A stretch of 20,255 nt of DNA, from assembly GCA_029557025.1 (NCBI GenBank), contig JAKPRU010000823.1, positions 1-20,255 on the forward strand, read 5' to 3'. The translations under genes and the position numbers were made by a program. The first letter of the stretch is position 1, and each line of letters starts with the position of its first letter. Of this stretch, positions 1,030 to 17,787 are shown piece after piece. The stretch is from Candidatus Omnitrophota bacterium. Its GTDB lineage: Bacteria; Hinthialibacterota; Hinthialibacteria; Hinthialibacterales; JAKPRU01. The notes under the pieces are model-generated. The model made no database searches. It saw only the letters and a program-made list of their open reading frames with translations, and was not told the DNA's origin.

Positions 1030-1052
1030 GCCCGGTGAACATTCCTCCGGGC
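1030..1052 (-). other. Hairpin between tRNA-Thr and tuf
   Basis: GCCCGG at one end pairs with CCGGGC at the other (6 bp) around an 11-nt loop in the tRNA-tuf spacer. No T-run follows on the minus strand, so it does not look like an intrinsic terminator. It may mark the point where the tRNA is cut from the tuf mRNA, or shape the tuf leader; this is inference. Confidence 0.4.
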
Positions 1053-1076
1053 CGCTTGTATGTACCGTTACTGCAA

Positions 1077-1149
<73 letters not shown>

Positions 1150-1155
1150 AGATTC

Positions 1156-1193
1156 CGGGAGGAGTCTGATCCATAAAGACGGGTCTCCTCCCG
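1156..1193 (-). other. Leader hairpin upstream of tRNA-Thr
   Basis: CGGGAGGAG (1156-1164) pairs perfectly with CTCCTCCCG (1185-1193) around a 20-nt loop. Pairing of the outer ATTC/GAAT bases continues with one bulge. It lies between the predicted promoter and the tRNA 5' end, so it would sit in the transcript leader 6 nt from the mature tRNA 5' end. A role in processing is possible but not shown by the sequence. Confidence 0.45.
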
Positions 1194-1221
1194 AATCCAT
1201 GCCTTCATGTTAGAGTCAGAA

Positions 1222-1297: not shown

Positions 1298-3700
1298 ATG
1301 GGACTTCTCGGAAACAGGTCATGGCAGTCGATTCTCCGTAACGGTGCGCCGTATTTACTCTGTTTCCTGTTTCTGGTTCTGCTGACCTGGCGTATTGTTT
1401 TCCTGGCGAATCAGCCGATGTTCGGCGATATTGCCTGTCAGTTTCTTCCATGGAAAGCCTACGCCCGTGAGAAGCTGTTCACCGGGCGGGTTCCACTGTG
1501 GAATCCCCATACGTACGGCGGCGCGCCGTTTCTTGCCAACCTGCAATCCGCGGTTTTTTATCCCCTGGATTTGATTCTATTCGCTTTTCCGCTGGAGTAT
1601 TTCTTTGGTCTTTCGCTGCTGCTTCATTTGTCGATCAACCTGTGGTTGACGATACGTCTTGGGCGGGCTTGCGGACTCTCCCTGTGGGCCGCCTCTCTTG
1701 CGGCGCTTGTTTATGCGTTGAACGGCTTCGTCATGATTCACATTATGGCGGGCAATCACCTGACCTACATTGCGATATCCTGGACACCGGCGCTGTTTCT
1801 TGCGGCGATCCGTGCGGTTCGCGCGTCCGCGCTTCGATGGCAGTATTGCGCCTGTTTTGCCTTCCTGATGTCCATGCAGATTCTGTGCGGGCATCCGCAA
1901 ATGGCTTTTTATGCGTTCTTTTTCACGGCGGTTTTTCTTGCGGGATACGGCGGACCGACCGGACAAGACCGGCTGGTTCGCGGTGTGGCGGCATTCGTTA
2001 TCGGGGGTGTGATTGCCGGGATCCTCTGCGCCTTTCAGATATTTCCCACGCTTGAGTATATCCCGCTTTCCGGTCGCAGGTCTGCCCTGTCGTTCGAGCA
2101 GGCAACGGAGTTCTCCTTTTCCTGGCATCGGATGATCAGCCTGTTTGCCGGTGAGTTTTTCGGTTCGCACGCTTGGGGGAATCACTGGGATCGGTTCTAT
2201 TACTGGTCATCGGCTTACGGGGGAGCGGTGACGCCTTTTCTGGCGATTCTGGGTGTGTGGAGTTGGCGCTCCAAGCGGTCTCTCCAGCTTGGATTGTTGC
2301 TTACGGCGATGCTTGCGCTGTTTCTGGCCTGCGGTCGTGACAATCCTTTTTATCACGTGGTTTTGGCATTGCCTGGATTCAAGTATTTCCGCGCGCCGGC
2401 AAAGTTTCTGCCGTGGATGATTCTTCCGATGGCGCTTTTTGCGGGACGGGGTTTGGACTGGCTGGTTTGTCATCTGCGATCCCTGAAAAGCGCGAAGAAA
2501 GGCTTACGCAACCTTGCTGTGCCTGCGCTTACGGTTTTTGTCGGGGTGTTCGGACTGTCCCTGGTTGTGAGATTTCGTGAGTTTCAATCCGCTCAGAACA
2601 TCTCCGTGGTTCGGATTGCCTCCCTGTTTGTCGCGGTCGGGTTTTTGTTTGTCGCCCTCTCGTGGTATGGGATGGGGCGGCAATTCCGGGTGTTTCGCGG
2701 TTCGGTTTTCGCGGTCGGGATGCTAATCCTGGTCGGCGCGGATTTGTGGTTATACGGATACAAATACGTGGATGGGTGCCTGGTTCCGTCGTATCGTGTG
2801 CGGGTTTGGCTGACTCCGCCGCCCGAAGCGCAGTTGTTGCAGAGCCTGGAGCGGCAATCGGGTCCTTTTCGAGTGGCGATGGTGGGGAACGTCCCGTTTC
2901 CGAATATGACGATCCCGTGGAATCTTATGGGACTGGGCGGATACGATCCCATGAGCCTGCGATTTACTATGGATCTGTTGGGTGCAAGCGAAGGCTGGGA
3001 ACCGGATCGGTTTGTGGATTCAGTGGAACTGAAACGAGCCGAGAGTCCGGTTTACGACCTTTTTGATGTTCGGTATCTCCTCTGCTCAAAAGACGCGAGT
3101 GAACTTTCCTTTAAGAAACTGTTCGACGGGCCGTATTTTCGTGTGTATGAGCGGGAACGCTCCCCCCGTGCGGTGCGATGGGTGGGATTAGAGCAAGTAG
3201 ATTACCGTCCGGACACTGTCTCCCTCAGACCACAGGAGGACCTTCTGCGGCTCACTTGGGATCGCCCGGAAATCAATTGTAATCCTATAGAAATCAGTAA
3301 CTTAGAAACAGATGATGTGGCAGGATCGGCGGATGTCCTGTCCTGGAAAGCACAAGAGATCCGGCTGCGATATAAGTCAACTCGGGAGGGCTGGCTGGTT
3401 CTTTCGCTGCCGTGGTATCCGGGCTGGACAGCATACATAGACGGGGAACGGGGAGAGTCCTCTGTGAGGGCAATGCATGCTTTGTCGGCGTTTCGTGTTC
3501 CAGCTGGGGAACATCAAGTTACTGTACGATTTCTGTCCGGTTCGTGGAGAATCGGGTGTATGGTCACCGCTGTGGGCCTGATCGGGGTGGTTGTCTGGTG
3601 TGTTTGGGCCTTGAAACGACAGAAGGGTAGGGAGCATGTGGATAAGTTTAATGAACTCAACCCGCCTTGTATTCCCCCCGATCTTCGGGGGGAAGGATAA
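1298..3700 (+). CDS. YfhO-family polytopic membrane protein (GT-C-like)
   Basis: An 800-residue integral membrane protein with many hydrophobic segments; the first is at about residues 18-37. Just after it, in the outer loop, comes the family pattern D44...QFLPW, then PLWNP (66-70) and GGAPFLANLQSAVFYP (74-89). This matches YfhO-type proteins, which resemble GT-C glycosyltransferases using lipid-linked sugars. D44 would be the acidic residue at the usual catalytic place. The hydrophobic block ends near residue 500. A soluble C-terminal part contains GWLVLSLPWYPGWTAYIDG (about 698-716) and the VPAGEHQVTVRF beta-strand, both typical of YfhO, before a last membrane helix. AGGAGAG (1277-1283) may be the ribosome binding site, at a rather long 14-nt spacing. 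The last residues, IPPDLRGEG, are encoded by an intergenic hairpin repeat. Likely envelope glycan modification; substrate unknown. Confidence 0.85.
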   Translation: MGLLGNRSWQSILRNGAPYLLCFLFLVLLTWRIVFLANQPMFGDIACQFLPWKAYAREKLFTGRVPLWNPHTYGGAPFLANLQSAVFYPLDLILFAFPLEYFFGLSLLLHLSINLWLTIRLGRACGLSLWAASLAALVYALNGFVMIHIMAGNHLTYIAISWTPALFLAAIRAVRASALRWQYCACFAFLMSMQILCGHPQMAFYAFFFTAVFLAGYGGPTGQDRLVRGVAAFVIGGVIAGILCAFQIFPTLEYIPLSGRRSALSFEQATEFSFSWHRMISLFAGEFFGSHAWGNHWDRFYYWSSAYGGAVTPFLAILGVWSWRSKRSLQLGLLLTAMLALFLACGRDNPFYHVVLALPGFKYFRAPAKFLPWMILPMALFAGRGLDWLVCHLRSLKSAKKGLRNLAVPALTVFVGVFGLSLVVRFREFQSAQNISVVRIASLFVAVGFLFVALSWYGMGRQFRVFRGSVFAVGMLILVGADLWLYGYKYVDGCLVPSYRVRVWLTPPPEAQLLQSLERQSGPFRVAMVGNVPFPNMTIPWNLMGLGGYDPMSLRFTMDLLGASEGWEPDRFVDSVELKRAESPVYDLFDVRYLLCSKDASELSFKKLFDGPYFRVYERERSPRAVRWVGLEQVDYRPDTVSLRPQEDLLRLTWDRPEINCNPIEISNLETDDVAGSADVLSWKAQEIRLRYKSTREGWLVLSLPWYPGWTAYIDGERGESSVRAMHALSAFRVPAGEHQVTVRFLSGSWRIGCMVTAVGLIGVVVWCVWALKRQKGREHVDKFNELNPPCIPPDLRGEG
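3672..3694. repeat. Perfect GC hairpin overlapping the 3' end of the YfhO gene
   Basis: TTCCCCCCGA (3672-3681) and TCGGGGGGAA (3685-3694) form a 10-bp perfect stem with a 3-nt TCT loop. It encodes the final residues of the YfhO-type protein up to the stop. No T-run follows, so it looks more like a dispersed repeat that supplied the stop codon than a classical terminator. It could still block 3' exonucleases. Confidence 0.6.
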
Positions 3701-3710
3701 GAGGGTTGAT

Positions 3711-3745
3711 TCCTCTCCGGAGGATTGGGGGAGGTCAGGTGGGGG
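3711..3745. repeat. Degenerate CTCTCC/GGAG...TTGGGGG intergenic repeat
   Basis: The element reads CTCTCC, then GGAGG, ATTGGGGGAGG and a G-rich tail. The same order (TCTCC, short loop, GGAGA, TTGGGGGGAG) recurs at 17842-17872, so the two look like members of one repeat family. The match is imperfect and judged by eye. Confidence 0.4.
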
Positions 3746-4144
3746 TTGACAAGTTCAGCAGGTTCAACTCCCTGTGTGTCTCTCCTGATCCTTGGGCGAA
3801 ATGATTTCCTGTAAAGCGCAGCGAGGATACGAGATAAAAGTGGTTGTGGAATGGATGTAAAGCTAGGCTTGCCAAACGGTTAGGTATATAATACAAGAAA
3901 GAGGTTTTGAATAACAAGGATTGCCCCGCATTGGCTTATTTGTTGGTATCATCAGCAATTTCAACGGCTTATGTATGAGTTGAGGGTCTTTGACCGGAAG
4001 TGGAATCGAACCGATTCTCGACGGACGCGGTTTTTGTATAAAATACATGTTACCGGAGGCAGGAGGCATTCGTTTACAGCCTGTGCGGAGGTGTAATCAT
4101 GTGAAAGGAGTAGAGCCGAAATAGGTCGGCTGCGCAGCAGAATC
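3746..4144. other. Gene-free spacer with a small inverted repeat upstream of the ECF sigma gene
   Basis: About 400 bp with no credible gene; the longest plus-strand reading frames checked are around 20 codons. The only clear structure is a perfect inverted repeat, GAATCG-AAC-CGATTC, at 4003-4017, about 130 bp before the sigma gene. It could be an operator or a hairpin, and it also resembles a tRNA T-arm by chance. A TATAAT occurs at 3887-3892 but has no -35 box at a suitable distance. TTGACC at 3990-3995 has only a poor -10 (GATTCT) 17 nt downstream. The promoter of the sigma operon is therefore not settled. Confidence 0.4.
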
Positions 4145-4879
4145 GTGAGCAGACAATCAGCAAGTATGACAGCGACTGCCGGATCGAACCTATGGGCGAG
4201 CACGCAGACCATGGAGCGAGCTTTGGAGAAAAGCGCCGAGGAGAGCGGCGGCAGGCTTGCATCCATGCCGCTGACGTTGCGGAACTTGCAGGGGCTTTCC
4301 GATGAAGAATTGATGATGGCCTGTCGGGTGGGAAGACAGGAGGCGCTTGAAGAACTCTATAAGCGCCATTACAGGCCCGTTTTTTCGTTTATCCTGCGTA
4401 TTGTGCAGGATCGGCAATTGGCGGAAGACTTGGTGCAGGAAACGTTTATGCGGGTGTATGGCAGCCGGGAACGCTGGGAGCCGAAATCGAAGTTTACGTC
4501 CTGGATGTACCGGATTGCCCGTAACCTCTGCATTGACGAAAAGCGTCGATATTGGAATCGACTGGTGCAACGGGACACCGATGCGCCCACCAATTCATCG
4601 GGGGATACCATGTCGGTGATTGACGCGACGATGGAGAAAGGGCCGGATGCGCGTCAGGAATATGCGGAGAGAGTGCATCAAGACATCATTATGCGCGCCA
4701 TCAACTCTCTCTCGCCGGACCAGAGGGAAGTGATTATTTTGAATAAGTATCAAGGGTTGTCATATCTCGAGATTGCCGAGATATTGAACGTCACCCCGGA
4801 ATCGATCAAACAACGCGCGTACCGGGCACATTTGAAACTGAGACAGATTCTCCGTCCATTGATGGAGGAATATCAATAA
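4145..4879 (+). CDS. ECF-type RNA polymerase sigma factor
   Basis: A group 4 (extracytoplasmic function) sigma-70 family factor, directing RNA polymerase to a dedicated set of promoters. Region 2 spans about residues 66-138: ALEELYKRHYRPVFSFILR, then the core-binding AEDLVQETFMRVY and the -10-recognising FTSWMYRIARNLCIDEKRR. A poorly conserved linker of about 40 residues follows, then region 4 (182-238) with LSPDQREVIILNKYQGLSYLEIAEIL and the helix-turn-helix NVTPESIKQRAYRAHLKLR. There is no sigma region 3. The GTG at 4145 gives 244 residues, longer than the usual ~180-200. ATGs at 4166, 4211 and 4265 are in frame; none has a strong Shine-Dalgarno sequence, so the first ~40 residues may not be translated. 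The anti-sigma gene starts 1 nt after the stop, implying translational coupling. Confidence 0.95.
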   Translation: MSRQSASMTATAGSNLWASTQTMERALEKSAEESGGRLASMPLTLRNLQGLSDEELMMACRVGRQEALEELYKRHYRPVFSFILRIVQDRQLAEDLVQETFMRVYGSRERWEPKSKFTSWMYRIARNLCIDEKRRYWNRLVQRDTDAPTNSSGDTMSVIDATMEKGPDARQEYAERVHQDIIMRAINSLSPDQREVIILNKYQGLSYLEIAEILNVTPESIKQRAYRAHLKLRQILRPLMEEYQ

Positions 4880-4880
4880 C

Positions 4881-5567
4881 ATGGACGAACATCCTTGCCG
4901 ATTCGATCAAGATCTTCTGTCGAGGTACGTATCCTGCGACTGCGATGCCGAGGAGCGGATGCGTGTCGAGCGGCATGTGCGGATCTGCCGGGATTGTCGT
5001 CGGAACCTGTACGAGTTCGAACAGGCCTGGAGCCTTTTGGAGGAATGGGAGGTTGATGAAGCGGAGATTCCTTATCAGCCGGAGACCCTGCGTGCGGGTC
5101 TGGAAGAGCGGTTTGGGACAGCCCGGAAGTCCTCCAGATGGTGGGATGTGATATCGTTCAGTTGGGGTTGGGGTGTTTTGCGGCCCATTCCAGTGGCCGC
5201 TGTGGTTGGGGTTTTGGCAGCCATTCTGGCCTGGTGGGACATGGATACGCTCACGGCTCCTTCGATGATGCAACCGCTTGAGACTCTTGCCGTTTTGAAA
5301 CCGACACCGGCGCTCGAACCGACTCCGGCGTTGGAACCGACACAGGGATCGGCGGTAAGGGTAAAAGAAGAAGTGGATATTGCAAAAGAACTTGAGCAAA
5401 TCAACCAGAGCGCCGAAAGAATCCGTACACTCCAGAATTTCACCGGGATCAGAACGAAAGGGAACTACGAGGACTTCCGTTCTCAGCTGAATAATCCTTC
5501 TCTGCCACTCCCCGTTTTCCGCCCGCAGACGGATATCGCGATGGTTTCCCTATCGGGTCGACTGTGA
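4881..5567 (+). CDS. Membrane-anchored zinc-binding anti-sigma factor (ZAS type)
   Basis: A 228-residue protein expected to hold the upstream ECF sigma factor at the inner membrane until a signal arrives. The N-terminal cytoplasmic part has H32-x3-C36-x2-C39 (HVRICRDC), the zinc motif of ZAS-domain anti-sigma factors, with further cysteines at 19 and 21. One hydrophobic segment (about 102-119, PIPVAAVVGVLAAILAWW) should cross the membrane. The remainder would be periplasmic. It begins with two and a half copies of a PTPALE repeat (141-155) and ends in a helical stretch rich in Glu, Gln and Arg. ATG 4881 follows the sigma stop by 1 nt, with GGAGG at 4864-4868 inside the sigma gene. Position and motif agree; the inducing signal cannot be read from the sequence. 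Confidence 0.88.
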   Translation: MDEHPCRFDQDLLSRYVSCDCDAEERMRVERHVRICRDCRRNLYEFEQAWSLLEEWEVDEAEIPYQPETLRAGLEERFGTARKSSRWWDVISFSWGWGVLRPIPVAAVVGVLAAILAWWDMDTLTAPSMMQPLETLAVLKPTPALEPTPALEPTQGSAVRVKEEVDIAKELEQINQSAERIRTLQNFTGIRTKGNYEDFRSQLNNPSLPLPVFRPQTDIAMVSLSGRL

Positions 5568-5596
5568 TTTTTCGATTGACGACGCATAAGACCTGG

Positions 5597-5616
5597 ATTC
5601 CGGCTTTCGCCGGAAT
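5597..5616. repeat. ATTCCGGC-TTTC-GCCGGAAT hairpin repeat
   Basis: A perfect 8-bp stem with a 4-nt loop lies between the anti-sigma gene and the HtrA-like gene. It is followed by GACGGATAGAGGCCGGGATGACG, in which part of the repeat (CCGGGATGACG against CCGGAATGACG) recurs. Sequences of the form TGGATTCC-hairpin-GGAATGACG are common dispersed intergenic repeats in many bacteria. No T-run follows, so termination is doubtful and read-through into the next gene is possible. Confidence 0.6.
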
Positions 5617-5697
5617 GACGGATAGAGGCCGGGATGACGTTGAGGGGGATTCGGGTTTATGAGGGAATAACAGTTATCGGATAGTCCGCAGATCCAT

Positions 5698-5705
5698 GGA
5701 GAGGA
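5698..5705 (+). promoter_or_regulatory. Ribosome binding site that fixes the start of the HtrA-like gene
   Basis: GGAGAGGA lies 8 nt before ATG 5714. The in-frame ATG at 5696 lies upstream of it with no such sequence in front. The 5714 start also places the hydrophobic signal segment directly at the N-terminus. Confidence 0.6.
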
Positions 5706-5713
5706 CCTGGCTG

Positions 5714-6877
5714 ATGATTCGTGTGTTGATCGCAGCGACAGTGATTTTTACTCTCACCCAAACGGGACAGACCCAGGGTGCGCCGGTGGATTATTCTCAG
5801 GTGTATCAGGACGTGCGAGGGGGGGCTGTGCGAATCACGGCCAAACTGGTTCCGGGCGCGGACGAACAGAAACTGGGGCAGGATACGGCCGAACTGGTCC
5901 AGTTCCTCAAGAGTTTCAGTGACTCCCTCTCCCAGCAACAGTTTCAGCCGATTCGTGTGATTGACTTCTGGCAGAGCTGGTATGAGCGGTTTAACGCGGT
6001 TCACAATAGTTTCCTTGAAATGGTGGGGCGGCGGGGACAGGAGGGCAATCCGGTTTACAACAGTATCGGTATTGTAGTGGATCGAGACGGATTGATTGTC
6101 TCCAGTAACGCCTCCATTCTCTGCTCAACCAGTGTGATGGGCCTGGAGGTCTACGACGCGAATCAGACCGTGTATGATGCGACGGTGACAGCGGTGGATA
6201 CAATCACGAATATCGCGCTGGTCAAAGCGTTCGGGGCGCGGTTTGATCGGGTGATCTCCATTACACCGGCAGTGGAGTTGCCACCTGCCGGCACGCCGAT
6301 TTTCTCTATTCAACATTGTTACACTCCCAAACAAATGACCCCGGTCCCGGGGACCATCGGGAACAGCGGATTCAATGGGTACGGATATCAACTGAATGTG
6401 TTGCGGGCCTATCACGAGGAGTATTTCCAGGCCCTCATGTCGGTTTATCATGACAGCGAGGGAGCGCCGATTTTCGATTTACAGGGGAATCTGCTGGGTC
6501 TTCTGGCGCTGGACTATCGCCTGGCCCCGTATCCCGGTGTCGCGTTCGCCGTTCCCGACTGGATGGTTGCCGATGTGGCCACGGACCTGATTTTGTATGG
6601 GAAACGGGAGCGGGGCGGTTTGGGGTTGGAGTTTGACTGGCAGACTCTGAAGGTCACCGGTGTGGAGAAAGGCGGGGCCGCGGAACGGGCCGGAATTGAG
6701 GTCGGCGATATTATCGAATCATTCAATGGGGTTCCGATCAACAGCGGCATTCATTTGTTTTACCAAGTGCTTAAGACTCGGCCGAACCAGCATGTTCAAA
6801 TTCGTGTGCGTCGGCAACAGGAAGCCCGTCAGATCGTCATCAGCATGGATAATACGGTTTCAAACTCCGGGATTTGA
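5714..6877 (+). CDS. Exported HtrA-like PDZ protein with apparently lost protease triad
   Basis: A 387-residue protein beginning MIRVLIAATVIFTLTQTGQT, a signal peptide with probable cleavage near residues 20-24, so it should be periplasmic or membrane-tethered. A helical region (about 45-110) precedes a trypsin-like fold of HtrA type, followed by one PDZ domain (about 300-380: LGLEFDWQTLKVTGVEKGGAAERAGIEVGDIIESFNG). By hand alignment to DegP, the catalytic His in TNNHV becomes Ala133 (SSNAS). The Asp in SDIALL becomes Asn166 (TNIALV), and the Ser in GNSGGP/GNSGAP becomes Glu249 (DSEGAPIF). All three triad positions therefore seem replaced; Ser248 is adjacent to the expected site, leaving slight doubt. 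It follows a sigma/anti-sigma pair, so a binding or sensing role in envelope stress is the natural guess. Its last 18 bp overlap the convergent ATP-grasp gene. Confidence 0.85.
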   Translation: MIRVLIAATVIFTLTQTGQTQGAPVDYSQVYQDVRGGAVRITAKLVPGADEQKLGQDTAELVQFLKSFSDSLSQQQFQPIRVIDFWQSWYERFNAVHNSFLEMVGRRGQEGNPVYNSIGIVVDRDGLIVSSNASILCSTSVMGLEVYDANQTVYDATVTAVDTITNIALVKAFGARFDRVISITPAVELPPAGTPIFSIQHCYTPKQMTPVPGTIGNSGFNGYGYQLNVLRAYHEEYFQALMSVYHDSEGAPIFDLQGNLLGLLALDYRLAPYPGVAFAVPDWMVADVATDLILYGKRERGGLGLEFDWQTLKVTGVEKGGAAERAGIEVGDIIESFNGVPINSGIHLFYQVLKTRPNQHVQIRVRRQQEARQIVISMDNTVSNSGI

Positions 6878-8410
6878 TACAAGTCGCCACAGGTGACGGG
6901 TTACTCCCGGTTCGGCCTTTTTCCCCGGTTGGGGGATGAATTCAGAATGAGTTAATCCGGCAGGGCGGGGATTCGCGTCCAGCACTTGTGCATCCAGTTT
7001 TTCGCTTGTCGATAGTTCCAATTTCAAGTCCACTCCCACAAGAGCCAAGTCCGGGAAGGCTTTGGCGGCGGACTCGGCAATTCCGCAGATTCGAGTCAGC
7101 CTATCCGCATCCCACTCGATCTTGCGACCTTCGGGACCATACAGACTCTCCATCGCTCCCCGGCTGAATTTCCGGATTGTCCCGCCCCGTGATGCGGAAG
7201 ACACCATGGATTGCTCATCGCCCGCGACCTGCAAGTAGCCGCTCTCTGCGCGGTGTCGTTGACCGTCGAAACTGACATTGAGCCGCAAATCGCAAACATG
7301 TCCCGTCATATCTCCAGCCGCATGAAAACGGACATTGCCCACCCATTCACGCACAATGGCGTCATCTTCTGTGAGAATCTGCCGAACCATGGAGATCGCA
7401 TCCGAATCCCGCTCGGGTTCAAGAATCAGGCTATTTACGCTACGACCCTCGGTTCCCGAATCAGGTTGCACGGCGCACAGGAGAGAGTGTTTCCGAGAGT
7501 TTTCTCGGAACTCTCTTAAAATGGATTGAACCATTGCCGGTGAACTCTGTGCCGGGATGAGGACTGTTCTGGGAGTGGGAACAGCGGCGTGTTTCCACAG
7601 ATCGTAACAGGCGATCTTACTGTCGGCGGTTTCGGCTGCGTGGCGATAGGGATTGAGTTGGAGAATCCCGCGCCGGGTGGCTGCCTCGGATACCTCGCGA
7701 TGGGCGGTGGGAGAGGCGCACAGAACAAGAATTGCGCAGACCGACAGCGGCGGATCGCAGTCGGTCTCGATGAGCGCGTACCCGGCGGGATCGTAGAATG
7801 CGGCGCGTGTGGGTCTGCACTGCTCATCCAGCCAGGCGATATGGGATGCGCACACTTGCCATTGCGGTTCGCCGAATGTTTCCAGGTTGTAGACACAGGC
7901 ATCCACAAACAGCGGGAAGCATTCATTCATTATGTTGGGGAATGCCTCGAAAACGACGAGGACAACGGGTTTCTCACTGACAACGCGGCGATACTTCGCA
8001 GCGGGAAGGATACTCGGACAGACCCGCAATTCCGGCGCGGAACGCTGCCCGAGCAACTGTTCCCAAACGAGGAAGGTCATTCGTCGGCGATATCTTTCCG
8101 AGTGGATTTGCTCCAGGTCTTCCGGTGAAAACTCGGCGGCATGATCCTGTTTCAGAATGCGCAACAGGTCTTCCAGGTCTTGGTCCCAGATATTCCGGAT
8201 GAAGGAATTCAGTGTCTCGAAACCGGAGCCGGAGCCGGCATCGGCGATATCCGGGTGAATGTCGGGGATTTCCTGTTTTACGCAGCGCAACAGGGCATAT
8301 TTGAGTACAAGGGAGAGGTCCGAATTGGACAGGGGATCGGACGGCTTTCTTCCGATGGATTCCGCTGTGTCGGTATAAGCCTCCAAAATAATGTTTCGCG
8401 GATTGTTCAT
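6860..8410 (-). CDS. ATP-grasp fold protein, probable carboxylate-amine ligase-like
   Basis: A 516-residue protein, without signal peptide, whose C-terminal half follows the order of ATP-grasp ligases. It shows DSK265...YDLWKHAAVPTPRTVLIPA, the glycine loop AVQPDSGTEGRSV (about 313-325), VREWVGNVR (hinge), DLRLNVSFDG (374-383), SRGG (407-410), GVDLKLEL (459-466) and DANPRP (478-483). Such enzymes join a carboxylate to an amine or thiol through an acyl-phosphate. Two positions differ from the common pattern: the lysine of VKP is Gln315, and the metal-binding E-x-N is D478-x-N480. The N-terminal ~250 residues are not recognised. ATG 8410 has no clear Shine-Dalgarno sequence, and a hairpin repeat lies 14 bp upstream of it. 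The gene stands alone, divergent from ribF and convergent with the HtrA-like gene. Substrate unknown. Confidence 0.75.
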   Translation of the reverse strand: MNNPRNIILEAYTDTAESIGRKPSDPLSNSDLSLVLKYALLRCVKQEIPDIHPDIADAGSGSGFETLNSFIRNIWDQDLEDLLRILKQDHAAEFSPEDLEQIHSERYRRRMTFLVWEQLLGQRSAPELRVCPSILPAAKYRRVVSEKPVVLVVFEAFPNIMNECFPLFVDACVYNLETFGEPQWQVCASHIAWLDEQCRPTRAAFYDPAGYALIETDCDPPLSVCAILVLCASPTAHREVSEAATRRGILQLNPYRHAAETADSKIACYDLWKHAAVPTPRTVLIPAQSSPAMVQSILREFRENSRKHSLLCAVQPDSGTEGRSVNSLILEPERDSDAISMVRQILTEDDAIVREWVGNVRFHAAGDMTGHVCDLRLNVSFDGQRHRAESGYLQVAGDEQSMVSSASRGGTIRKFSRGAMESLYGPEGRKIEWDADRLTRICGIAESAAKAFPDLALVGVDLKLELSTSEKLDAQVLDANPRPAGLTHSEFIPQPGKKAEPGVTRHLWRLVSNPGV

Positions 8411-9816: not shown

Positions 9817-12800
9817 ATGGATCGTATCTGTCTGCCTGTATACTGCGTGGATCGAACCGCGCCGAAAACACGTGTTCCTGTGGCGCGACGCAACACGGGT
9901 GTGGAAATTGCCACAGACCGCATGAAAATGTCCGACAAAATCACCTCGTTCCAGTTGCCGGAGTCCCGCAAGGACCCGGACGGAGTGCGAGCGGCCAAAG
10001 CCGTGCTGAATGCCGCCGCTCAAGGCATTCTGGCGCGCACCATGGGACCGAGAGTGAATCGGATTCTCAAGGGGATCCGAAGCGCCTCTGTTCGAATCCG
10101 CTGGTGTGAAGGCCACGATGTTCTTGCCGATGTGGTGAAAGAGGAGGACTCTCTCCGAATCGCAGCGGACGTGTTTGCGGAGTTGGGGGTATCCGTTTCG
10201 GAAGAGGATGAATCGCTCGCAGGAGATTCGCAGGCGGTTTTAGGTGCGGAGCTGCTTGGTTCCGTTGTGCTGCTGTTCGGTCTTTCGGTTCTTTCCGGCG
10301 ATTCCCAGCGGGATGCGATTCATACCGTTCTGGATTTCTGGTTTCTGCTGGACCAGGAACGTCGCGATGCGCTGCGGCGAATCCTGCGATCCGCCGAATC
10401 CGTGGACCGTGGTCACGTTTTTCAGATCTTCTTGCAAAACGCTTTGAACGCGGAACTGGCGGGGCAAATGGAAGGTGTCCGCATCGAACGATATGCGCAT
10501 CTGGGCGCAAAGGAATTGCGCGACTTGGGCAACAATTTATTGGAATTGACCCGGTCCATTCCCGAATCCACCGTTTCTATTCCCAAGAAGTCTTTTCAAA
10601 GGGCTATCAGTCTTTTGAACCGGACAGGCGAGCAGGGCCGGGAGACCGCCGAATCTCTCGAAGGTCTGGGACCGGATCATCCGCAGGAATTTCTGCACGC
10701 TTGCGAGCGTGTGATGCGCGAGCTGGAGGGGACACTGAAATGGCGCGATTTGTGGGTGACCTGGCTGATCGGCCAGTCGCGGATTGACTTGCCTTATGAC
10801 CATGAGCGGGTTCTGGCGATTCTCGATCAGCCCGGTGAGGACGTCGATTTGCAGCGGGCAATGGTCAATGAGGCGGTGGTCGGCACGTATGACCCACGGG
10901 TGGAGGGGCTGAATATCCGTCGCATTGCGGACTGGGCGCTGGAGAATCATGTGCGGCTGGTGGGCGGGCGTCTATCACGCGCATTCGGCAACCAGGCGCA
11001 CCTTCTTTCGGTCAGTAAACTTGTGACCGGCAAAGAGGCGCTATTGGAAACGGCGCAGGAATTGTACCTGCATTGCCGGATCATCCGCGACTTGGAGACC
11101 TTTGCCACCCGACTGGTCAGCCTGATGGGCCGCCCCGGCGAGATTTCATATTCCGCGGCGGTGGGGGCCATCGACCAGCTGGAAGAGGCGTTGATTAAGT
11201 ATCAATCCTCCGAGCTCAAGGCCATTATGCGGGAACGGGAGGAGGCCTCCCGCCGACTACTGACCGGTGGCGTGGAAGAGCGTACGGAGCGAGACCGCAG
11301 AAACCTGTTTGTGGATGTGAGCCGGATTTTTAATCTGATCGGCGAACTTCGCGGGCGACTGGCGCAAGCGCCCGCGCGGGATGCGGCGTATGTCATCCTT
11401 TTGCAGCGCACACACCCCGCCGAAACAATCAACCTGGCGAATGCGAACGCATTTCGCGAAGTCCATCCCGGAAAAGAAGAAGATTTAAAAGATCTCCCCC
11501 GTCGTGGCGGGCACAACACTTACGCCACGCCGGGTCCCGGCAAGATCCTTCTACCGAACGGGGATGTGGAAGATTCCCATTGGATTATCAAAGTACAGGA
11601 TTGGGTGGAAGCCATCCCGCTGTTTATTCACGAGCGGGTGATTCGCAAGACCGTGGAGGTCGGCGGGGAAGAGCGGGTCGTAGAGGTGATCGAAACGGAA
11701 GTGGACCAGGAGGCGATGGAAGCCTTCTTCCGACTTCATGCGGAGTTCTGGGCGCGCAATATCGAGGAGGTAATGGATTCCGAGCATATTGCCGTCGCCC
11801 GTCAACTCTTACTGGAAAAGGAACCTCCTTTACTGGCCAGAGCGGAACGGCGGCTTGCCGAATATCCTTCCCTGGGCCGGGCGGAAGCGATTCGGACGGT
11901 TCTGAAATCCGCGAAGGATCTGAACGGCTATATCGGGCCGGTGGCGGCAGTGGTGGCCGATTCCGCGCGGAAGGCTATTTTAGATATTAACCGAACGGTC
12001 GAGAAATCAGGGCGCCTTCGCCGTGATGTACTCGTCCCTGTGTTGGTGGAAACAGGAGGAAAATCCTCCGGCATCGGTGCGGCTTATACCTCCGCGAAGG
12101 ATGCGGAATCCCTGTACAAACGCTGCAAGACCCTGGTCGGTAAAGACCCCGATCTGCAGCGGGAAGCGGATCGGCTCGGGGCACGGGGGATGGAACGGCT
12201 TCGGCCGGTGCCCTCGCTCCACATTTTGACTACCGAATCCGCCGGAATGACCGAGGGATATGTGCAATCCTGGATTGAGGAGGAAATGGCGCTGTACAAC
12301 GCCATCAAGGGCGAGGGTTTGGAACAGGAAGTCCGGAATCGGCTTAGCCGGTATCGCAATCAGATTACGCGGATCGGCAGGAAAGTCATTCATGAGTTTG
12401 CGATGGATGTCGTGATCGACGAGGTGATGGCGGATCAGCGTATCGACCGGGAACGCGCCACGGGGACTGTGGTGATGTCTTTTCTTCCGGTAGCCAATGA
12501 GGTCTCGAAATTAGCCGTGCTGCTGGAAGAGGACCCCGAAGGAAATCCGGACGCGGAGGTGATTGTCGATCCTCCGTCCGTGGAACGGGTGATGGAAGCG
12601 CATCGGATTGAGTTGGAAACAAGCTGTGTTCCCAAGGTAATCGAAAATAACGGGCAGCTGATCCTGGACCGTATCAATGCCTTCCTGAAAGAGAATCCCG
12701 GGATCGACTTGAACACCGCGCAGCGATCGGTAATCGACAGTGACCGGGACTATGCGGAGGAACTGGAAAACCTCGTTCGATTTGAGGCGCGACAGCGTGT

Positions 12801-15800
12801 GTTGAACGCGCTGCACGAGGCGAATCCGGCGCGCGGTATTCCCGGGAAGGTGGCGACGTATCTGCGACGGCATACGAGTCTCGGATTGTCGACGGCCCGC
12901 AAAGAGACACTAGCCGAACGGGATTTGCAGCATCTGGTACTGAATCCCAAGTACCATTACCAGGCTGTGGGGGGCAATAAGCGGTACAACCTGCTTTACA
13001 CACCCAGCCGTGTGAACCTGGGCGAACGAGAGCGGGATTCGGTAGTGAAATGGCGGCAGTGGGTCGGCGGAGCGGATGCCACGGCGGCCCGCGCCGGATT
13101 TGAATTTTATAGCCTTGTCAATGAGGGCGGTGTGGAAGAACGTCCGGCCCTGGCTCATGCGGAGATACAGAAAACCTCCGAGAATGCGCTTTGCGTTACG
13201 CATTTCGCCGGGTCCAACGCGCTCGCGCTGTTGATTATGGCCGTCACAGAAGGCGATGAAGAGGATATGGCCGACCAGATGAACCTGCGCGAGGACCGCC
13301 TGGTGCTTCCCGCCGGGGAAGGCTATGGCGGCTACTGCGTGCCGAAAGACGGCCTGTTCCTGGCCTTTGTGCTTTCGTTAACGAATGAGGTAAAGCTGCG
13401 CCAGATCGGAATACCAGATCACCATCGGGCCGGTGTGATGGCGCTTGCCAAAAAGGCCCTGATACACAAGAACGACTTTGAATCCGAGTTGGATTGGCAG
13501 GTCTGGGCGGCGGAAAAACTGTTGTCGGTTGATTCGCTGAAGGAGTTTTTCGAGGTACGCGACGGCCTCCTGGTGATGCAGATCACGAAGATCGCCAAGG
13601 CGATTGTGCGCCTGGGGCGACCGTGGCCGGAGGTTGCGGACGGGGCGACGTTGATAGCCAATCTCGCGGCGCGGTGGGGCGTGGAAAAGATGATTATCTG
13701 CGCCGAGCAGGTTAACCGGTTTATGGTGTTCTATAAGGCCTGGATGATTTACCAATGCATCCGGGAAGCGCGGGAGCATGAATCCCGTTGCCCGACCGAA
13801 GAGCACGCGCGCATTGCGCTGACTGCCGAATATAAGCCTGTTCAGGACGTCCGGTACTCGACGGGGCTTCGGCTATTTGAGATTTTCGCTCAAACCGGAG
13901 AGCATCTGACATTCAGCCTTGATGAGGAAGGACAGAATCTCGTTTACTTGATGGCGCACGGTTTTGATCCGGAGGACCACCATCCGGTTGCGCGTCGGTT
14001 GCGTGAACAACTGGCGGCATCTTTCGATCTGAAATTGACCGACCCCGCGACCGTGGAGAGGCTGAAGAAAGCTTTCCCGCGTCATCTACCCCCTGCCGAT
14101 ATTGTCATGACCTCGATTACCATGTCCTCTACCCAGGATGTGCTGCACTACACGGCGGACACAAAACTGGACGCGGTAGCGGAAGCGGTGAAGACAAAAC
14201 TGGCCGATGTCGGCTTGAGCGAAGAACAGATTACGGCGAACGCGAAGGTATATGGCGGGAAACTCGCGGAGTGGGCCGGAATAAAGGACCTTCCCGAAGA
14301 GCAGCGGAATCGACTAATGGCCGATATCGCCGGCAACATTCACGCATTGGTACTCAAATACCGGGGACCGGGCCGGGACTACGAGAGAGATGTCCAGGGC
14401 ATTGACGTGCTGAATACGGGTATCCCGTTCCGTGAACTATTGGACCTGATTGACGATGCGCCGAAGTTGGTAGCCCTGATGCTGAACGGGAACCCGAACA
14501 GTTCGCTGGCGATTGCGGACGGCGCCGCAGGCAAAAAACGTCGCGCCCTGACTTATCGCGACATTATGACGTTCTTTGCGGCCTGCGAGAAATTCGGACG
14601 GCGCGGGACTTATCGGGCCATCGGGCTGGGATCATCCAATGTGGAACGTCTACGCGATGAAATGCACCGGAAACGCGAACGCGCTTTGAATCTGTACCAT
14701 CGAATTGAAGCCGTTGCAATCGCAAAAGACAACACGGTTCGAGACCGGGCGATTCAAGAGGCGAAGGACTTTTACAGCAGGCTGCTCCACCATATTCAGG
14801 AAGAGGATGAAGCCGGTAAAGCGCTTCGAGAAGAGGAACGCCTGAAGCGATACGGAACGTGGCGTGAAGGGGATGCGTTTATCAGCCAGGCGTCGGCCAA
14901 ATTGTCTGCCGGGCTTCCGTTATCGCATCTGGATTTCGGGACCTGGATTGCAGGAATCGGCGGAATTTTTGTGGTGACCGGCGAGCCGGAAGCGCGGGTT
15001 TGTGAAATCCGAACGCTCTTTGAAAAGGGCATAGACGGGATTCGGCGACGGGAACGCCGACCGGCGATTGTATTCGACGGGCCGCGCTCTACGCCTCAAG
15101 AACCGTTCACACCGAGGGAAATGGACCTGCTGATGAAAGCGCTGGTTCGCTACAAATACGTTCCCGAAACGCAACAGTTCAAGCAGCAGCAGTTAGTCGA
15201 ATCCTCCAGCAAGGCCGTAGAGGTAGCGGCGGCGGAAGCCCTGGAACGCCGTCGCGCGCTCCAGCAGCGTGCCATGCGCGCTCAGGCATTTTCCAATCGC
15301 GAGAAAGGATTTCAATCGGCATTCGATTCCGCACAGAAACAGCCGTTCGGTTCGTATTCCCAGAAGGCCCGTCAGGTAATGGATCGGATGGGGATCGATC
15401 TGGAGACTGCCCTGAGAGGGGAATCCGAAGACCGTTCGCTTGAATGGTTGTCTCACCTTAATCACGAGTTTGGAATGTTAATCGCCCATACCCGTAACGC
15501 CCTCGTGGCGCTGGCGGATGCCGTCGTTCCTGCGGAGAATCGTGTACTCCGAGAACGCATTTCGGAGGACCTCGGAGTGGTGTTCTCCGGCCGGGAAATC
15601 ACCCTGGAAGACTGGAAGAAAATCGCAGGCGGATACGAAAACATCGGTGATTTGGCGCGTGTGGCGGAGGCCGCGGAAGGCGATAAGGGAAAATTAGCCA
15701 TGATCGCCGAGGGCATCGAGTATTTCTATGTAACATTTGCGCTGGCCCAGACACTGGAATTTGTCTATCAGGCGTGCGGTGAATACGACCAGAGGGTATT

Positions 15801-17787
15801 CTGGAAAAATCTGACCGATTTCTTCGCGGAGACGGTGAACGATCACCGGTGCGAATACTGGCCCTGGGCGTATTCGCGCGGTTCGGGATTCCTTTGTCTT
15901 ACGCCTGAAGAGCGGTACGAATTGGCGGTGAAACATCATCGCCGGCTGTATGAGTACATCCGTAACCTGTTGATCTATCGAACCGAATTAGCCGATTGCC
16001 CGGCCCACGAACGGGATCATTTACTTGGAGATTTCACGGGAACAAACGAATTGCCGGGCATTGGGGCCGATGCACCAACGGCGACAGAACGCCGGTGGCG
16101 CGCCTACAACCAACTGCGCGAAATCTGTTTCATGCGCAGCGATGGATTCCCGATCCCTGTTGTTTTTGAGAAATTCGATCCGGATATCATCGCCGCGGAT
16201 GAGCGCGTGAACCTCGCGTTCCTGTTTCCGGTAGGGCGGACGCACGTGTCCCGTGCGTTACGGGAGGGGCCGACACTGAATCGCGATTTGCTCAAGGAGG
16301 GGAGGTCCGGCGCGAATGTTTTGATTACTCGATTCGGGCGATTTGTAACGAATCAGGGCACTAGAAAGCCGAGCCTTGTAGTCGACGGTGCGCATCTGTA
16401 TGTCACCCGCGACGAATTTGCGGAGGCGCTTCGGCGCCATCGCGGGCTGTCCGATGAGGAAATTAAATCGGTACTCGAGGCGGAGGAGAAATCGGGGCGG
16501 CTTCAGTCGAAGGGGATTCGCCTCGCCGTTCGATTTACCCGTCCTGTAACGGTGGGATCGGTTATCCCGTATCACGGTCTCTCGATCTATGAATCCGGCG
16601 AACTGGAGGATGCCGGGTTTCCGGCGACCGTTCAGTCGCTGATTTTTTCAGATATTACTTACGACAAGTCTCTTTATCCGGAGATTTACGACCGAAAGAG
16701 CGGTGTGGATCTTCCACCGGAAATTGATTGGAAAAGGGCTTACAACGAAGGGCTTCCGGCGAAGGACATCCTCGCTCGAATTGAAGACGGGATTCCCGGT
16801 GGCGTGTATATCGGGCTGCGCAAGTTTGCGGAGGAACATCCGATTATATTGATTAAAGGCGCGGCGGAATCCGGCGCTCGGAATCTGAAAGTATTTGAAA
16901 TGCAGGACGCTCATGGGCGAGTCGATGCGGAGACGGTCCGCCAGGCGGCCGAGTTTGTGTATGATGTCTCGCGGTCTCAGAATGTAGTCATTCAGGCGGC
17001 CGTATTGACCTCGCCGGAGTTCTGGGCGAGCGACGAGCTGATGCGTTCGTTTGTGGATCGACAGATCCTCGAATGGAACATGCCGGTAAATCGGGACACC
17101 TACCCGCGCTCGCAGATTTATTGCTCGCTGCGTATAATCGTTTGCTCCTCGGAACCGGAGGAGCCGTATCGGACTGCGTTTCCCATTATCCTGATGAGCC
17201 TTCAGGTGGCGACTAATGTCGGACGCGGCGGCACACTGGAACCGCTGCGGGATGAGCTGGTTCAGGAGCGGTTTCGCGGTCAGTTGCGCCCGAAACTCGA
17301 ACAGCAAGCACCGAAGGTAATGGATGCCATGGCGCGTTTCTCCAAGAAGTACGCCAAAACATACCGGGAGGAGCGCGGACGGGAGGTCGGCGAGGATCTG
17401 CGTGGTGTCTCCTACGGGTGGCCGCCGTACCTGATGCTGGATTACCTGGCCACGCCGGTTTTCAAGCGAAGGGGACGGCTAGTAGATATCGAGCCGGAGT
17501 ATGATGAAAACGGGAGGAGAATCGGTTCGAAGGTAATCTTGCAGGATGAACAGGGCCGGTTTGAGGGCGAGATAGTCGATTGGAAGTTTATTCACCTCGA
17601 GCCGAATGTCGGCGTCGGATTATGGGATCGTTATACCTTGCGCGAGGAAGAGAACGAGCGACGGAAGGCCAAACGTGAGGGTCGTGAGATCAACTGGGAA
17701 GTCATTGGGGGCAGTGACCGGATTGTACTGCGCAGTTTTGCAATTGCCGGTGAGGAGTATCTGAAGGCGAATCTCCGGCAGGCTTAA
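9817..17787 (+). CDS. Giant cytoplasmic protein (about 2,656 aa) with a C-terminal ATP-grasp-like domain
   Basis: One open frame of nearly 8 kb. ATG 9817 is preferred over TTG 9805 or 9811; AGGAG lies at 9800-9804. There is no signal peptide. One hydrophobic patch (about 141-160, LLGSVVLLFGLSVLSG) looks too short and isolated for a membrane helix. Residues 1-560 and most of the middle are charged and probably helical, and a coiled-coil-like segment spans about 1788-1825. Near residue 1169 is GYGGYCVPKDG (Cys1174), resembling the UDP-glucose dehydrogenase active-site motif, though no GxGxxG Rossmann loop was seen before it. The C-terminus follows ATP-grasp order: IK2347G-AAESGARN, VVIQ, VDRQILEW (2413-2420), TNVGR2470GG (2466-2472) and E2595-P-N2597. 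I do not recognise the whole protein. A very large ATP-dependent ligase or modifying enzyme is a reasonable guess from the C-terminal part only. Confidence 0.85.
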   Translation: MDRICLPVYCVDRTAPKTRVPVARRNTGVEIATDRMKMSDKITSFQLPESRKDPDGVRAAKAVLNAAAQGILARTMGPRVNRILKGIRSASVRIRWCEGHDVLADVVKEEDSLRIAADVFAELGVSVSEEDESLAGDSQAVLGAELLGSVVLLFGLSVLSGDSQRDAIHTVLDFWFLLDQERRDALRRILRSAESVDRGHVFQIFLQNALNAELAGQMEGVRIERYAHLGAKELRDLGNNLLELTRSIPESTVSIPKKSFQRAISLLNRTGEQGRETAESLEGLGPDHPQEFLHACERVMRELEGTLKWRDLWVTWLIGQSRIDLPYDHERVLAILDQPGEDVDLQRAMVNEAVVGTYDPRVEGLNIRRIADWALENHVRLVGGRLSRAFGNQAHLLSVSKLVTGKEALLETAQELYLHCRIIRDLETFATRLVSLMGRPGEISYSAAVGAIDQLEEALIKYQSSELKAIMREREEASRRLLTGGVEERTERDRRNLFVDVSRIFNLIGELRGRLAQAPARDAAYVILLQRTHPAETINLANANAFREVHPGKEEDLKDLPRRGGHNTYATPGPGKILLPNGDVEDSHWIIKVQDWVEAIPLFIHERVIRKTVEVGGEERVVEVIETEVDQEAMEAFFRLHAEFWARNIEEVMDSEHIAVARQLLLEKEPPLLARAERRLAEYPSLGRAEAIRTVLKSAKDLNGYIGPVAAVVADSARKAILDINRTVEKSGRLRRDVLVPVLVETGGKSSGIGAAYTSAKDAESLYKRCKTLVGKDPDLQREADRLGARGMERLRPVPSLHILTTESAGMTEGYVQSWIEEEMALYNAIKGEGLEQEVRNRLSRYRNQITRIGRKVIHEFAMDVVIDEVMADQRIDRERATGTVVMSFLPVANEVSKLAVLLEEDPEGNPDAEVIVDPPSVERVMEAHRIELETSCVPKVIENNGQLILDRINAFLKENPGIDLNTAQRSVIDSDRDYAEELENLVRFEARQRVLNALHEANPARGIPGKVATYLRRHTSLGLSTARKETLAERDLQHLVLNPKYHYQAVGGNKRYNLLYTPSRVNLGERERDSVVKWRQWVGGADATAARAGFEFYSLVNEGGVEERPALAHAEIQKTSENALCVTHFAGSNALALLIMAVTEGDEEDMADQMNLREDRLVLPAGEGYGGYCVPKDGLFLAFVLSLTNEVKLRQIGIPDHHRAGVMALAKKALIHKNDFESELDWQVWAAEKLLSVDSLKEFFEVRDGLLVMQITKIAKAIVRLGRPWPEVADGATLIANLAARWGVEKMIICAEQVNRFMVFYKAWMIYQCIREAREHESRCPTEEHARIALTAEYKPVQDVRYSTGLRLFEIFAQTGEHLTFSLDEEGQNLVYLMAHGFDPEDHHPVARRLREQLAASFDLKLTDPATVERLKKAFPRHLPPADIVMTSITMSSTQDVLHYTADTKLDAVAEAVKTKLADVGLSEEQITANAKVYGGKLAEWAGIKDLPEEQRNRLMADIAGNIHALVLKYRGPGRDYERDVQGIDVLNTGIPFRELLDLIDDAPKLVALMLNGNPNSSLAIADGAAGKKRRALTYRDIMTFFAACEKFGRRGTYRAIGLGSSNVERLRDEMHRKRERALNLYHRIEAVAIAKDNTVRDRAIQEAKDFYSRLLHHIQEEDEAGKALREEERLKRYGTWREGDAFISQASAKLSAGLPLSHLDFGTWIAGIGGIFVVTGEPEARVCEIRTLFEKGIDGIRRRERRPAIVFDGPRSTPQEPFTPREMDLLMKALVRYKYVPETQQFKQQQLVESSSKAVEVAAAEALERRRALQQRAMRAQAFSNREKGFQSAFDSAQKQPFGSYSQKARQVMDRMGIDLETALRGESEDRSLEWLSHLNHEFGMLIAHTRNALVALADAVVPAENRVLRERISEDLGVVFSGREITLEDWKKIAGGYENIGDLARVAEAAEGDKGKLAMIAEGIEYFYVTFALAQTLEFVYQACGEYDQRVFWKNLTDFFAETVNDHRCEYWPWAYSRGSGFLCLTPEERYELAVKHHRRLYEYIRNLLIYRTELADCPAHERDHLLGDFTGTNELPGIGADAPTATERRWRAYNQLREICFMRSDGFPIPVVFEKFDPDIIAADERVNLAFLFPVGRTHVSRALREGPTLNRDLLKEGRSGANVLITRFGRFVTNQGTRKPSLVVDGAHLYVTRDEFAEALRRHRGLSDEEIKSVLEAEEKSGRLQSKGIRLAVRFTRPVTVGSVIPYHGLSIYESGELEDAGFPATVQSLIFSDITYDKSLYPEIYDRKSGVDLPPEIDWKRAYNEGLPAKDILARIEDGIPGGVYIGLRKFAEEHPIILIKGAAESGARNLKVFEMQDAHGRVDAETVRQAAEFVYDVSRSQNVVIQAAVLTSPEFWASDELMRSFVDRQILEWNMPVNRDTYPRSQIYCSLRIIVCSSEPEEPYRTAFPIILMSLQVATNVGRGGTLEPLRDELVQERFRGQLRPKLEQQAPKVMDAMARFSKKYAKTYREERGREVGEDLRGVSYGWPPYLMLDYLATPVFKRRGRLVDIEPEYDENGRRIGSKVILQDEQGRFEGEIVDWKFIHLEPNVGVGLWDRYTLREEENERRKAKREGREINWEVIGGSDRIVLRSFAIAGEEYLKANLRQA

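What the first reader, a model, noticed from the sequence alone, without database searches (positions are those of the whole stretch)
9817..17787. Giant unrecognised protein ending in an ATP-grasp-like domain
An uninterrupted frame of about 2,656 codons codes for a soluble protein without signal peptide, surface-repeat structure or polyketide/NRPS-like modules, which are the usual reasons for giant bacterial genes. The C-terminal ~300 residues show ATP-grasp elements in order: K2347 in IKG plus a Gly/Ala-rich loop, a hinge-like VDRQILEW, TNVGRGG and E2595-P-N2597. The preceding ~2,000 residues match nothing I recognise. A very large ligase with thousands of extra residues would be new: a self-contained assembly machine, a peptide or protein modifier, or a structural protein with an enzymatic end.
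Basis: partly seen in the sequence, partly recalled or inferred. Interest (0 to 1): 0.8.

Follow-up and report, generated by a model that had tools for sequence, protein, structure and literature searches.

The report
Giant sugar-dehydrogenase-like protein with ATP-grasp end
A roughly 2,650-residue bacterial protein with no recorded function carries the catalytic heart of a sugar-nucleotide dehydrogenase in its middle and an ATP-dependent ligase domain at its end, and it keeps company with a second, small ATP-dependent ligase, which suggests an undescribed enzyme system for sugar acids.

Summary
The giant frame is real (ATG 9817 to stop 17787, 2,656 codons) and belongs to a conserved family (147 and 82 hits from two queries). 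A split UGDH C-terminal domain probably follows. The UGDH NAD domain was not detected. It has strong hits in 14 of 14 giant-bearing genomes among 386 (three weak partial hits in the other 372), and in 19 of 20 in another phylum (1 of 44 others). It is often, not always, directly downstream of the giant, and fused once. Best guess: a sugar-acid (uronate) ligase machine. No structure could be computed; the substrate is unknown.

The parts
9817..17787 (+). giant protein, 2,656 aa (open frame from TTG 9805)
   Evidence: start chosen from the starts of relatives
9817..12975 (+). N-terminal about 1,050 residues; no recognised domain; conserved blocks such as GRxSRAFxNQ (388-397) and HVLTT (806-810)
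   Evidence: no Pfam/NCBIfam/PDB hit that names it; conservation; UGDH NAD domain not detected
12976..13374 (+). UDP-glucose dehydrogenase central (catalytic) domain, aa 1058-1190
   Evidence: PF00984 E 2.4e-6 above cut-off at 1118-1187; TIGR03026 E 5.1e-11 at 1058-1190, model positions 144-276 only, below its cut-off; hhalign P 4.1e-10
13336..13338 (+). codon of catalytic-type Cys1178 in GEGYGGYCVPKD
   Evidence: C in 189 of 189; aligned to the UGDH cysteine
13753..13989 (+). first part of a probable UGDH-type C-terminal (sugar-nucleotide-binding) domain, aa 1317-1395, with AEYKPxxDxR
   Evidence: P 0.005 alone; joined with the second part P 4.2e-5, above 30 permutations and 25 controls
14371..14529 (+). 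second part of the same probable domain after an insertion of about 130 residues, aa 1523-1575
   Evidence: P 0.002 alone
14602..16494 (+). aa 1600-2230, conserved, no recognised domain
16498..17646 (+). ATP-grasp domain, aa 2232-2614 (K2351, loop SGARN 2356-2360, Q2397, R2443, NVGRGG 2471-2476, EPN 2599-2601)
   Evidence: hhalign to small ATP-grasp family Prob 96.9, P 1.8e-10; relative P0156 hits PF02955 above cut-off at the equivalent of 2327-2402
6860..8410 (-). small stand-alone ATP-grasp protein, 516 aa, co-occurring partner of the giant
   Evidence: 23 members scanned: PF02655 in 13, PF14397 in 12 (best 5.1e-10), PF14398 in 11, at E up to 0.1; co-occurrence; adjacency in other lineages

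Best explanation
The gene encodes a giant enzyme of sugar-nucleotide chemistry. SHOWN by sequence: a UDP-glucose-dehydrogenase-type catalytic domain with the Cys, Lys and Asn of its active site, probably followed by a split sugar-nucleotide-binding domain of the same superfamily, and an ATP-grasp domain at the C-terminus; plus a separate small ATP-grasp protein that is present almost exactly where the giant is present. INFERRED: the dehydrogenase-like core binds a nucleotide-sugar (or sugar-phosphate) and forms the cysteine thio-adduct that ends as a carboxylate or thioester at C6; the C-terminal ATP-grasp, or the partner, activates that carboxylate as an acyl phosphate and joins it to an amine, giving a uronamide or amino-acid-linked uronate for a glycoconjugate. 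In several lineages a GHMP sugar kinase follows the pair and would supply the sugar phosphate. The unassigned N-terminal and middle segments would hold the redox cofactor site in an unrecognised form, the acceptor site, and the scaffold that passes the intermediate.
For: PF00984 above cut-off in P0001, P0018, P0063 and P0066, and hits in 16 of 19 diverse members at E up to 1; UGDH central domain P 4.1e-10; K1123, N1127, C1178 and K1181 in 189 of 189, D1182 in 114 of 114 of subfamily I and E in 75 of 75 of subfamily II. C-domain pieces P 4.2e-5 jointly. ATP-grasp P 1.2e-7 with 124 sequences (seven other giant windows score at most 17.5 and 20 permutations at most 20.4, against 62.1), P 1.8e-10 with the 189-sequence alignment; PF02955 and glutathione-synthase models in P0156, together with TIGR03026 in the same protein. 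Partner: strong hits in 14 of 14 giant-bearing genomes of 386, three weak partial hits in the other 372 (G009, G279 and G294 were not in the search model); in the phylum of G294, none of whose members was in the model, 19 of 20 giant-bearing genomes have it and 1 of 44 others. Next to the giant, same strand, in 14 of 18 places examined outside the window's own lineage or in paralogues; fused in P0068 in the order giant, ATP-grasp, GHMP. Distance correlation 0.76 over 21 giant/ATP-grasp pairs, 0 of 1000 permutations as high. GHMP kinase next after the ATP-grasp in 8 of those 14 places.
Against: No UGDH NAD-binding domain was found in any test, so oxidation is not shown. The C-domain pieces were chosen after seeing their separate hits. 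In the window's own genus the partner is two genes away on the opposite strand; in the other seven giant-bearing genomes of its class it lies elsewhere; in the phylum of G294 it is on another contig in 9 of the 19 genomes with both. One genome there (G386, 60% complete) has a giant without the partner and one (G387, 78% complete) the reverse. The GHMP kinase beside the ATP-grasp in six same-order genomes also occurs in four genomes of the class without the giant, so it is not specific there. The distance correlation may reflect shared descent alone. The genome has an ordinary UGDH as well. PDB profile searches with the giants gave no ATP-grasp hit. Substrate, acceptor and product are guesses. 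No structure could be computed.
Confidence: 0.4

Rival explanations
1. The UGDH-type core no longer oxidises. Without an NAD domain it uses the conserved Cys/Lys/Asn pocket to hold a sugar-nucleotide or a thioester intermediate, and the giant is mainly a ligase or assembly machine, with its partner a second ATP-grasp, acting on a sugar-linked or peptide substrate.
For: NAD domain not detected by profile in any window; TIGR03026 matches only positions 139-287 of 413 in the five giants tested; the catalytic Asp is Glu in 75 of 75 of subfamily II; two ATP-grasp modules. One source names P0066 'Rossmann-fold NAD(P)-binding', but Pfam finds only PF00984 in it.
Against: Cys, Lys and Asn of the oxidative mechanism are strictly kept, which is hard to explain if only binding is needed; about 1,000 conserved N-terminal residues could hide a diverged NAD site.
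Confidence: 0.35
2. The giant is a structural or regulatory scaffold with decayed enzyme domains.
For: Very large size; most of its length without recognised domain.
Against: Active-site residues of both enzyme domains are invariant or nearly so across two subfamilies, the reverse of decay; no significant internal repeats (best P 0.013 among the window pairs).
Confidence: 0.1
3. The system is an anti-phage defence or conflict module (enzyme plus ATP-grasp plus kinase).
For: Patchy distribution (14 of 386 genomes; 20 of 64 in one phylum).
Against: No PADLOC hit for the two giants, the ATP-grasp or the GHMP kinase scanned; ordinary cellular genes as neighbours in the window.
Confidence: 0.04

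Closest known systems
UDP-glucose / GDP-mannose dehydrogenase superfamily (TIGR03026, PF00984)
   Same: central domain with AExxK...N and GGxCxPKD; probable C-terminal domain with KPxxDxR
   Different: the family matches lie in open frames of about 400-600 aa (one partial of 168); the giant is about 2,650 aa, scores 42 bits against a family cut-off of 189.8, and shows no NAD domain
ATP-grasp ligases of the glutathione-synthetase / YheCD / sugar-transfer-associated groups (PF02955, PF14398, PF14397, PF02655)
   Same: order of K, Gly-rich loop, Q at the hinge, R, N-x-G-x-GG, E-x-N; homology to the small ATP-grasp partner; PF02955 in P0156
   Different: present as the last domain of a giant chain; insertions; Pfam does not name it in P0001 itself
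GHMP sugar kinases (galactokinase, HddA, mevalonate kinase groups)
   Same: follow the ATP-grasp in 8 of 14 operon-like places and are fused in P0068
   Different: not part of the giant in this window; the five scanned are below the NCBIfam equivalog cut-offs, so substrate unknown

Membership tests
UDP-glucose dehydrogenase family (TIGR03026) | central domain PF00984 above cut-off | tested here: met
   28 bits against 25.4; 16 of 19 members hit at E up to 1
UDP-glucose dehydrogenase family (TIGR03026) | catalytic Cys, Lys, Asn and Asp | tested here: met
   K, N, C 189 of 189; Asp 114 of 114 in the window's subfamily, Glu 75 of 75 in the other; roles recalled from UGDH enzymology
UDP-glucose dehydrogenase family (TIGR03026) | N-terminal NAD-binding Rossmann domain | tested here: not met
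   scores in the range of permuted or other-window controls; a diverged form is not excluded
UDP-glucose dehydrogenase family (TIGR03026) | family score above the 189.8-bit cut-off | tested here: not met
   42 bits
UDP-glucose dehydrogenase family (TIGR03026) | C-terminal sugar-nucleotide-binding domain | tested here: inconclusive
   joined pieces P 4.2e-5, controls lower, but pieces chosen post hoc
ATP-grasp superfamily (giant C-terminus) | significant profile homology to an ATP-grasp family | tested here: met
   P 1.8e-10; controls; P0156 PF02955 27.1 bits against 23
ATP-grasp superfamily (giant C-terminus) | conserved ATP-lysine and metal-binding E/N | tested here: met
   K2351, E2599, N2601 in all sequences that have the columns; roles recalled
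ATP-grasp superfamily (giant C-terminus) | ATP-grasp fold | not tested
   structure machine busy or silent in every attempt
ATP-grasp superfamily (small partner) | Pfam ATP-grasp hits | tested here: met
   PF02655, PF14397, PF14398 in 13, 12 and 11 of 23 members; the window's own member is below cut-off

The most novel reading that the evidence does not exclude
A roughly 300-kDa single-chain machine that both makes a sugar acid through a UGDH-type cysteine and couples it to an amine with its own ATP-grasp, working with a dedicated second ATP-grasp and often a sugar kinase: a new enzyme system for uronamides or amino-acid-decorated uronates, spread over several little-known bacterial phyla, with a redox cofactor site of unrecognised type.
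Probability: 0.25. Interest if true: 0.88.

Novelty: new variant of a known kind. Interest (0 to 1): 0.7.

Why it matters
A large conserved enzyme family has no recorded function: the names shown in the hit lists are 'hypothetical protein' or domain guesses, and most hits have none. It joins two catalytic chemistries in one chain and has a partner gene that makes its pathway testable. The strictly conserved dehydrogenase residues without a detectable NAD domain pose a direct biochemical question. The small ATP-grasp and the GHMP kinase give handles for finding the substrate.

Tried and rejected
Full-length match to a known family: none. Defence system: no PADLOC hit. Internal duplication: none significant. 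By eye I aligned the N-terminal region (GRxSRAF, QR..P, dhWiEAIP, LTTxS/GP) to the UGDH Rossmann domain; profile tests did not support it, so I do not claim it. A source's name 'Rossmann-fold NAD(P)-binding' for P0066 is not backed by Pfam, which finds only PF00984. GHMP kinase as a universal third partner: rejected, because the same-order type also occurs in four genomes of the class without a giant, and a GHMP kinase follows the ATP-grasp in only 8 of 14 operon-like places. The first profile comparison of the small ATP-grasp with the giant was weak (Prob 5%, P 0.007) and became strong only with deeper alignments. PDB profile searches found UGDH but no ATP-grasp for the giants; the small ATP-grasp gave only weak ligase hits (D-Ala-D-Ala ligase, E 0.3 or worse) and one better but off-topic hit to a repeat protein. 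Literature: (listings only seen, no paper opened) showed nothing on this family; a paper outside that library could exist.

Structure prediction: asked for many times and never accepted (two jobs too large; 'busy'; 'did not answer').

Full report
OBSERVATION. The frame runs unbroken from TTG 9805 to the stop ending at 17787. Upstream of it lies a riboflavin kinase/FAD synthetase gene and downstream a sulfatase gene, both on the plus strand.

FAMILY. A search with the window's protein returned 147 proteins at E up to 1e-3, of which 120 were listed; only the 8000 best candidates were scored. I call these subfamily I; most listed ones are about 2,360-2,740 aa, the rest mostly shorter pieces. A search with a divergent relative from genome G040 returned 82, which I call subfamily II. 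In the genome sample, 14 of 386 genomes hold a giant at E up to 1e-8, and 20 of 64 in the phylum of G294. The window's genus also carries a second, divergent giant on another contig.

DEHYDROGENASE CORE. In the window's protein Pfam reports one domain above its cut-off, the UDP-glucose/GDP-mannose dehydrogenase central domain at 1118-1187. NCBIfam TIGR03026 matches 1058-1190 with E 5.1e-11, but at 42 bits against a cut-off of 189.8, and only over model positions 144-276 of 413. In 19 diverse members scanned one by one, 16 hit PF00984 at E up to 1. Profile-profile comparison with 26 ordinary UGDHs taken from genomes gives P 4.1e-10 for window 1040-1220 against the UGDH central domain. The alignment superposes AExxK...N and GGxCxPKD. 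In 189 sequences K1123, N1127, C1178 and K1181 are present in 189 of 189; D1182 is D in 114 of 114 of subfamily I and E in 75 of 75 of subfamily II. That these are the catalytic residues of UGDH is recalled from enzymology. The UGDH C-terminal domain gave two separate, collinear, individually weak hits, at about 1317-1395 (P 0.005) and 1523-1575 (P 0.002). Joined, they score 34.7 (P 4.2e-5), against at most 22.3 in 30 column permutations and at most 17.1 in 25 same-shape controls; the pieces were chosen after seeing the separate hits. The UGDH NAD domain was not found in any window; one source calls P0066 'Rossmann-fold NAD(P)-binding', but Pfam finds only PF00984 in it.

ATP-GRASP END. The stand-alone gene at 6860-8410 (minus) is an ATP-grasp protein: of 23 members scanned, 13 hit PF02655, 12 PF14397 (best E 5.1e-10) and 11 PF14398 at E up to 0.1; the window's own member scores below cut-off. 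A first comparison of this family with the giant was weak (P 0.007). With 124 giants and 45 small proteins the giant's 2200-2660 aligned in register at Prob 94.2, P 1.2e-7, score 62.1; the seven windows not covering that part scored at most 17.5 and 20 column permutations at most 20.4. With the 189-sequence alignment it became Prob 96.9, P 1.8e-10. Independently, P0156 of subfamily II hits PF02955 (glutathione-synthetase ATP-grasp) at 27.1 bits, cut-off 23 (the other three proteins of that call did not hit it), at the equivalent of 2327-2402, and the same protein hits TIGR03026 and glutathione-synthase models. PDB profile searches with the giants found UGDH but no ATP-grasp. K2351, G2357, R2359, Q2397, R2443, N2471, G2476, E2599 and N2601 are kept in all sequences of both subfamilies that have those columns; R2474 is R in 113 of 113 of subfamily I and Q in 73 of 73 of subfamily II.

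PARTNER. In 61 genomes the giant proper was found in 12 (three further hits match only about 1033-1190 in frames of 431-487 aa, the size of ordinary UGDHs), and the small ATP-grasp in the same 12 and in no other. In 386 genomes: giant in 14, small ATP-grasp at E 2e-26 or better in the same 14; of the other 372, three gave weak partial hits (E 1e-6 to 1e-5 over 43-81 positions). The model did not contain G009, G279 or G294; the hit in G009 is a fragment on a separate contig. In the 64 genomes of the phylum of G294, none of them in the model, 19 have both, one (G386, 60% complete) only the giant, one (G387, 78% complete) only the ATP-grasp, and 43 neither. These searches score only the best few candidates per genome, so weak copies may be missed.

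GENE ORDER. At 18 places where sequence downstream of a giant was examined in other lineages and in the paralogues, 14 have the ATP-grasp next on the same strand; the misses are G438 and G440 (one genus) and G389 and G390, and in all four it lies on another contig. By contig, 10 of the 19 genomes of that phylum with both have them side by side. In the window's class it is not directly downstream in any of the nine main giants with downstream sequence (G000, G001, G003 to G009): in the window's genus it is two genes upstream on the other strand, in the others it lies elsewhere. A GHMP kinase follows the ATP-grasp in 8 of the 14 operon-like places. P0068 (4,185 aa) has giant, ATP-grasp and GHMP kinase in one chain in that order. 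In six same-order genomes a GHMP kinase lies beside the ATP-grasp, but that kinase also occurs in four genomes of the class without a giant. Over 21 giant/ATP-grasp pairs the distance matrices correlate at 0.76, reached by 0 of 1000 permutations; this does not separate co-evolution from shared descent, and two of the pairs were matched only by equal contig length.

MECHANISM. Shown: the domains above, conserved active-site residues, and a co-occurring partner. Inferred: the UGDH-type cysteine pocket works on a sugar-nucleotide or sugar phosphate, producing or holding a C6 acyl group, and an ATP-grasp activates a carboxylate and transfers it to an amine. This is the simplest scheme that uses both chemistries in one chain. 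The main weakness is the missing NAD domain, which leaves a non-oxidative variant nearly as likely. The genome has an ordinary UGDH too, so the giant need not be its routine source of UDP-glucuronate.

KNOWN OR NEW. The parts belong to known superfamilies; the architecture was not found in the searched library (listings only). It fails two defining tests of the UGDH family (NAD domain, family score), so I do not file it as a UGDH. Its C-terminus and the small partner are members of the ATP-grasp superfamily by sequence; the fold itself was not tested because the structure machine accepted no job.

Noticed in passing
L035 (G001 C128), L096 (G002 C728), L097 (G000 C382), L042, L039: The three genomes of the window's genus carry a second, divergent giant (about 28-33% identical) with its own ATP-grasp directly downstream, followed by a further gene shared by all three; in G001 that gene is a radical SAM protein of 610 aa.
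   Followed up: partly
P0068 residues about 2620-4185: A 4,185-aa relative fuses giant, ATP-grasp and GHMP kinase; the last few hundred residues look HAD-like by eye only (no call).
   Followed up: partly
L037 (G040 contig C45): Behind giant and ATP-grasp lie a P-II protein, a glutamate dehydrogenase and a class III aminotransferase, which hints at an amino-group theme.
   Followed up: no
L100 to L104 (same-order genomes): In five of six same-order genomes the small ATP-grasp sits beside two genes that look like hisF and hisH by eye.
   Followed up: no
window 4145-6877: ECF-type sigma factor, zinc-finger anti-sigma-like protein and a trypsin-like/PDZ protein in a row, a plausible envelope-stress module.
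   Followed up: no
aa 388-397 and 534-535 of the giant: GRxSRAFxNQ and QR motifs in the N-terminal third are nearly invariant, but nothing recognises them; candidate for an unusual cofactor site.
   Followed up: partly
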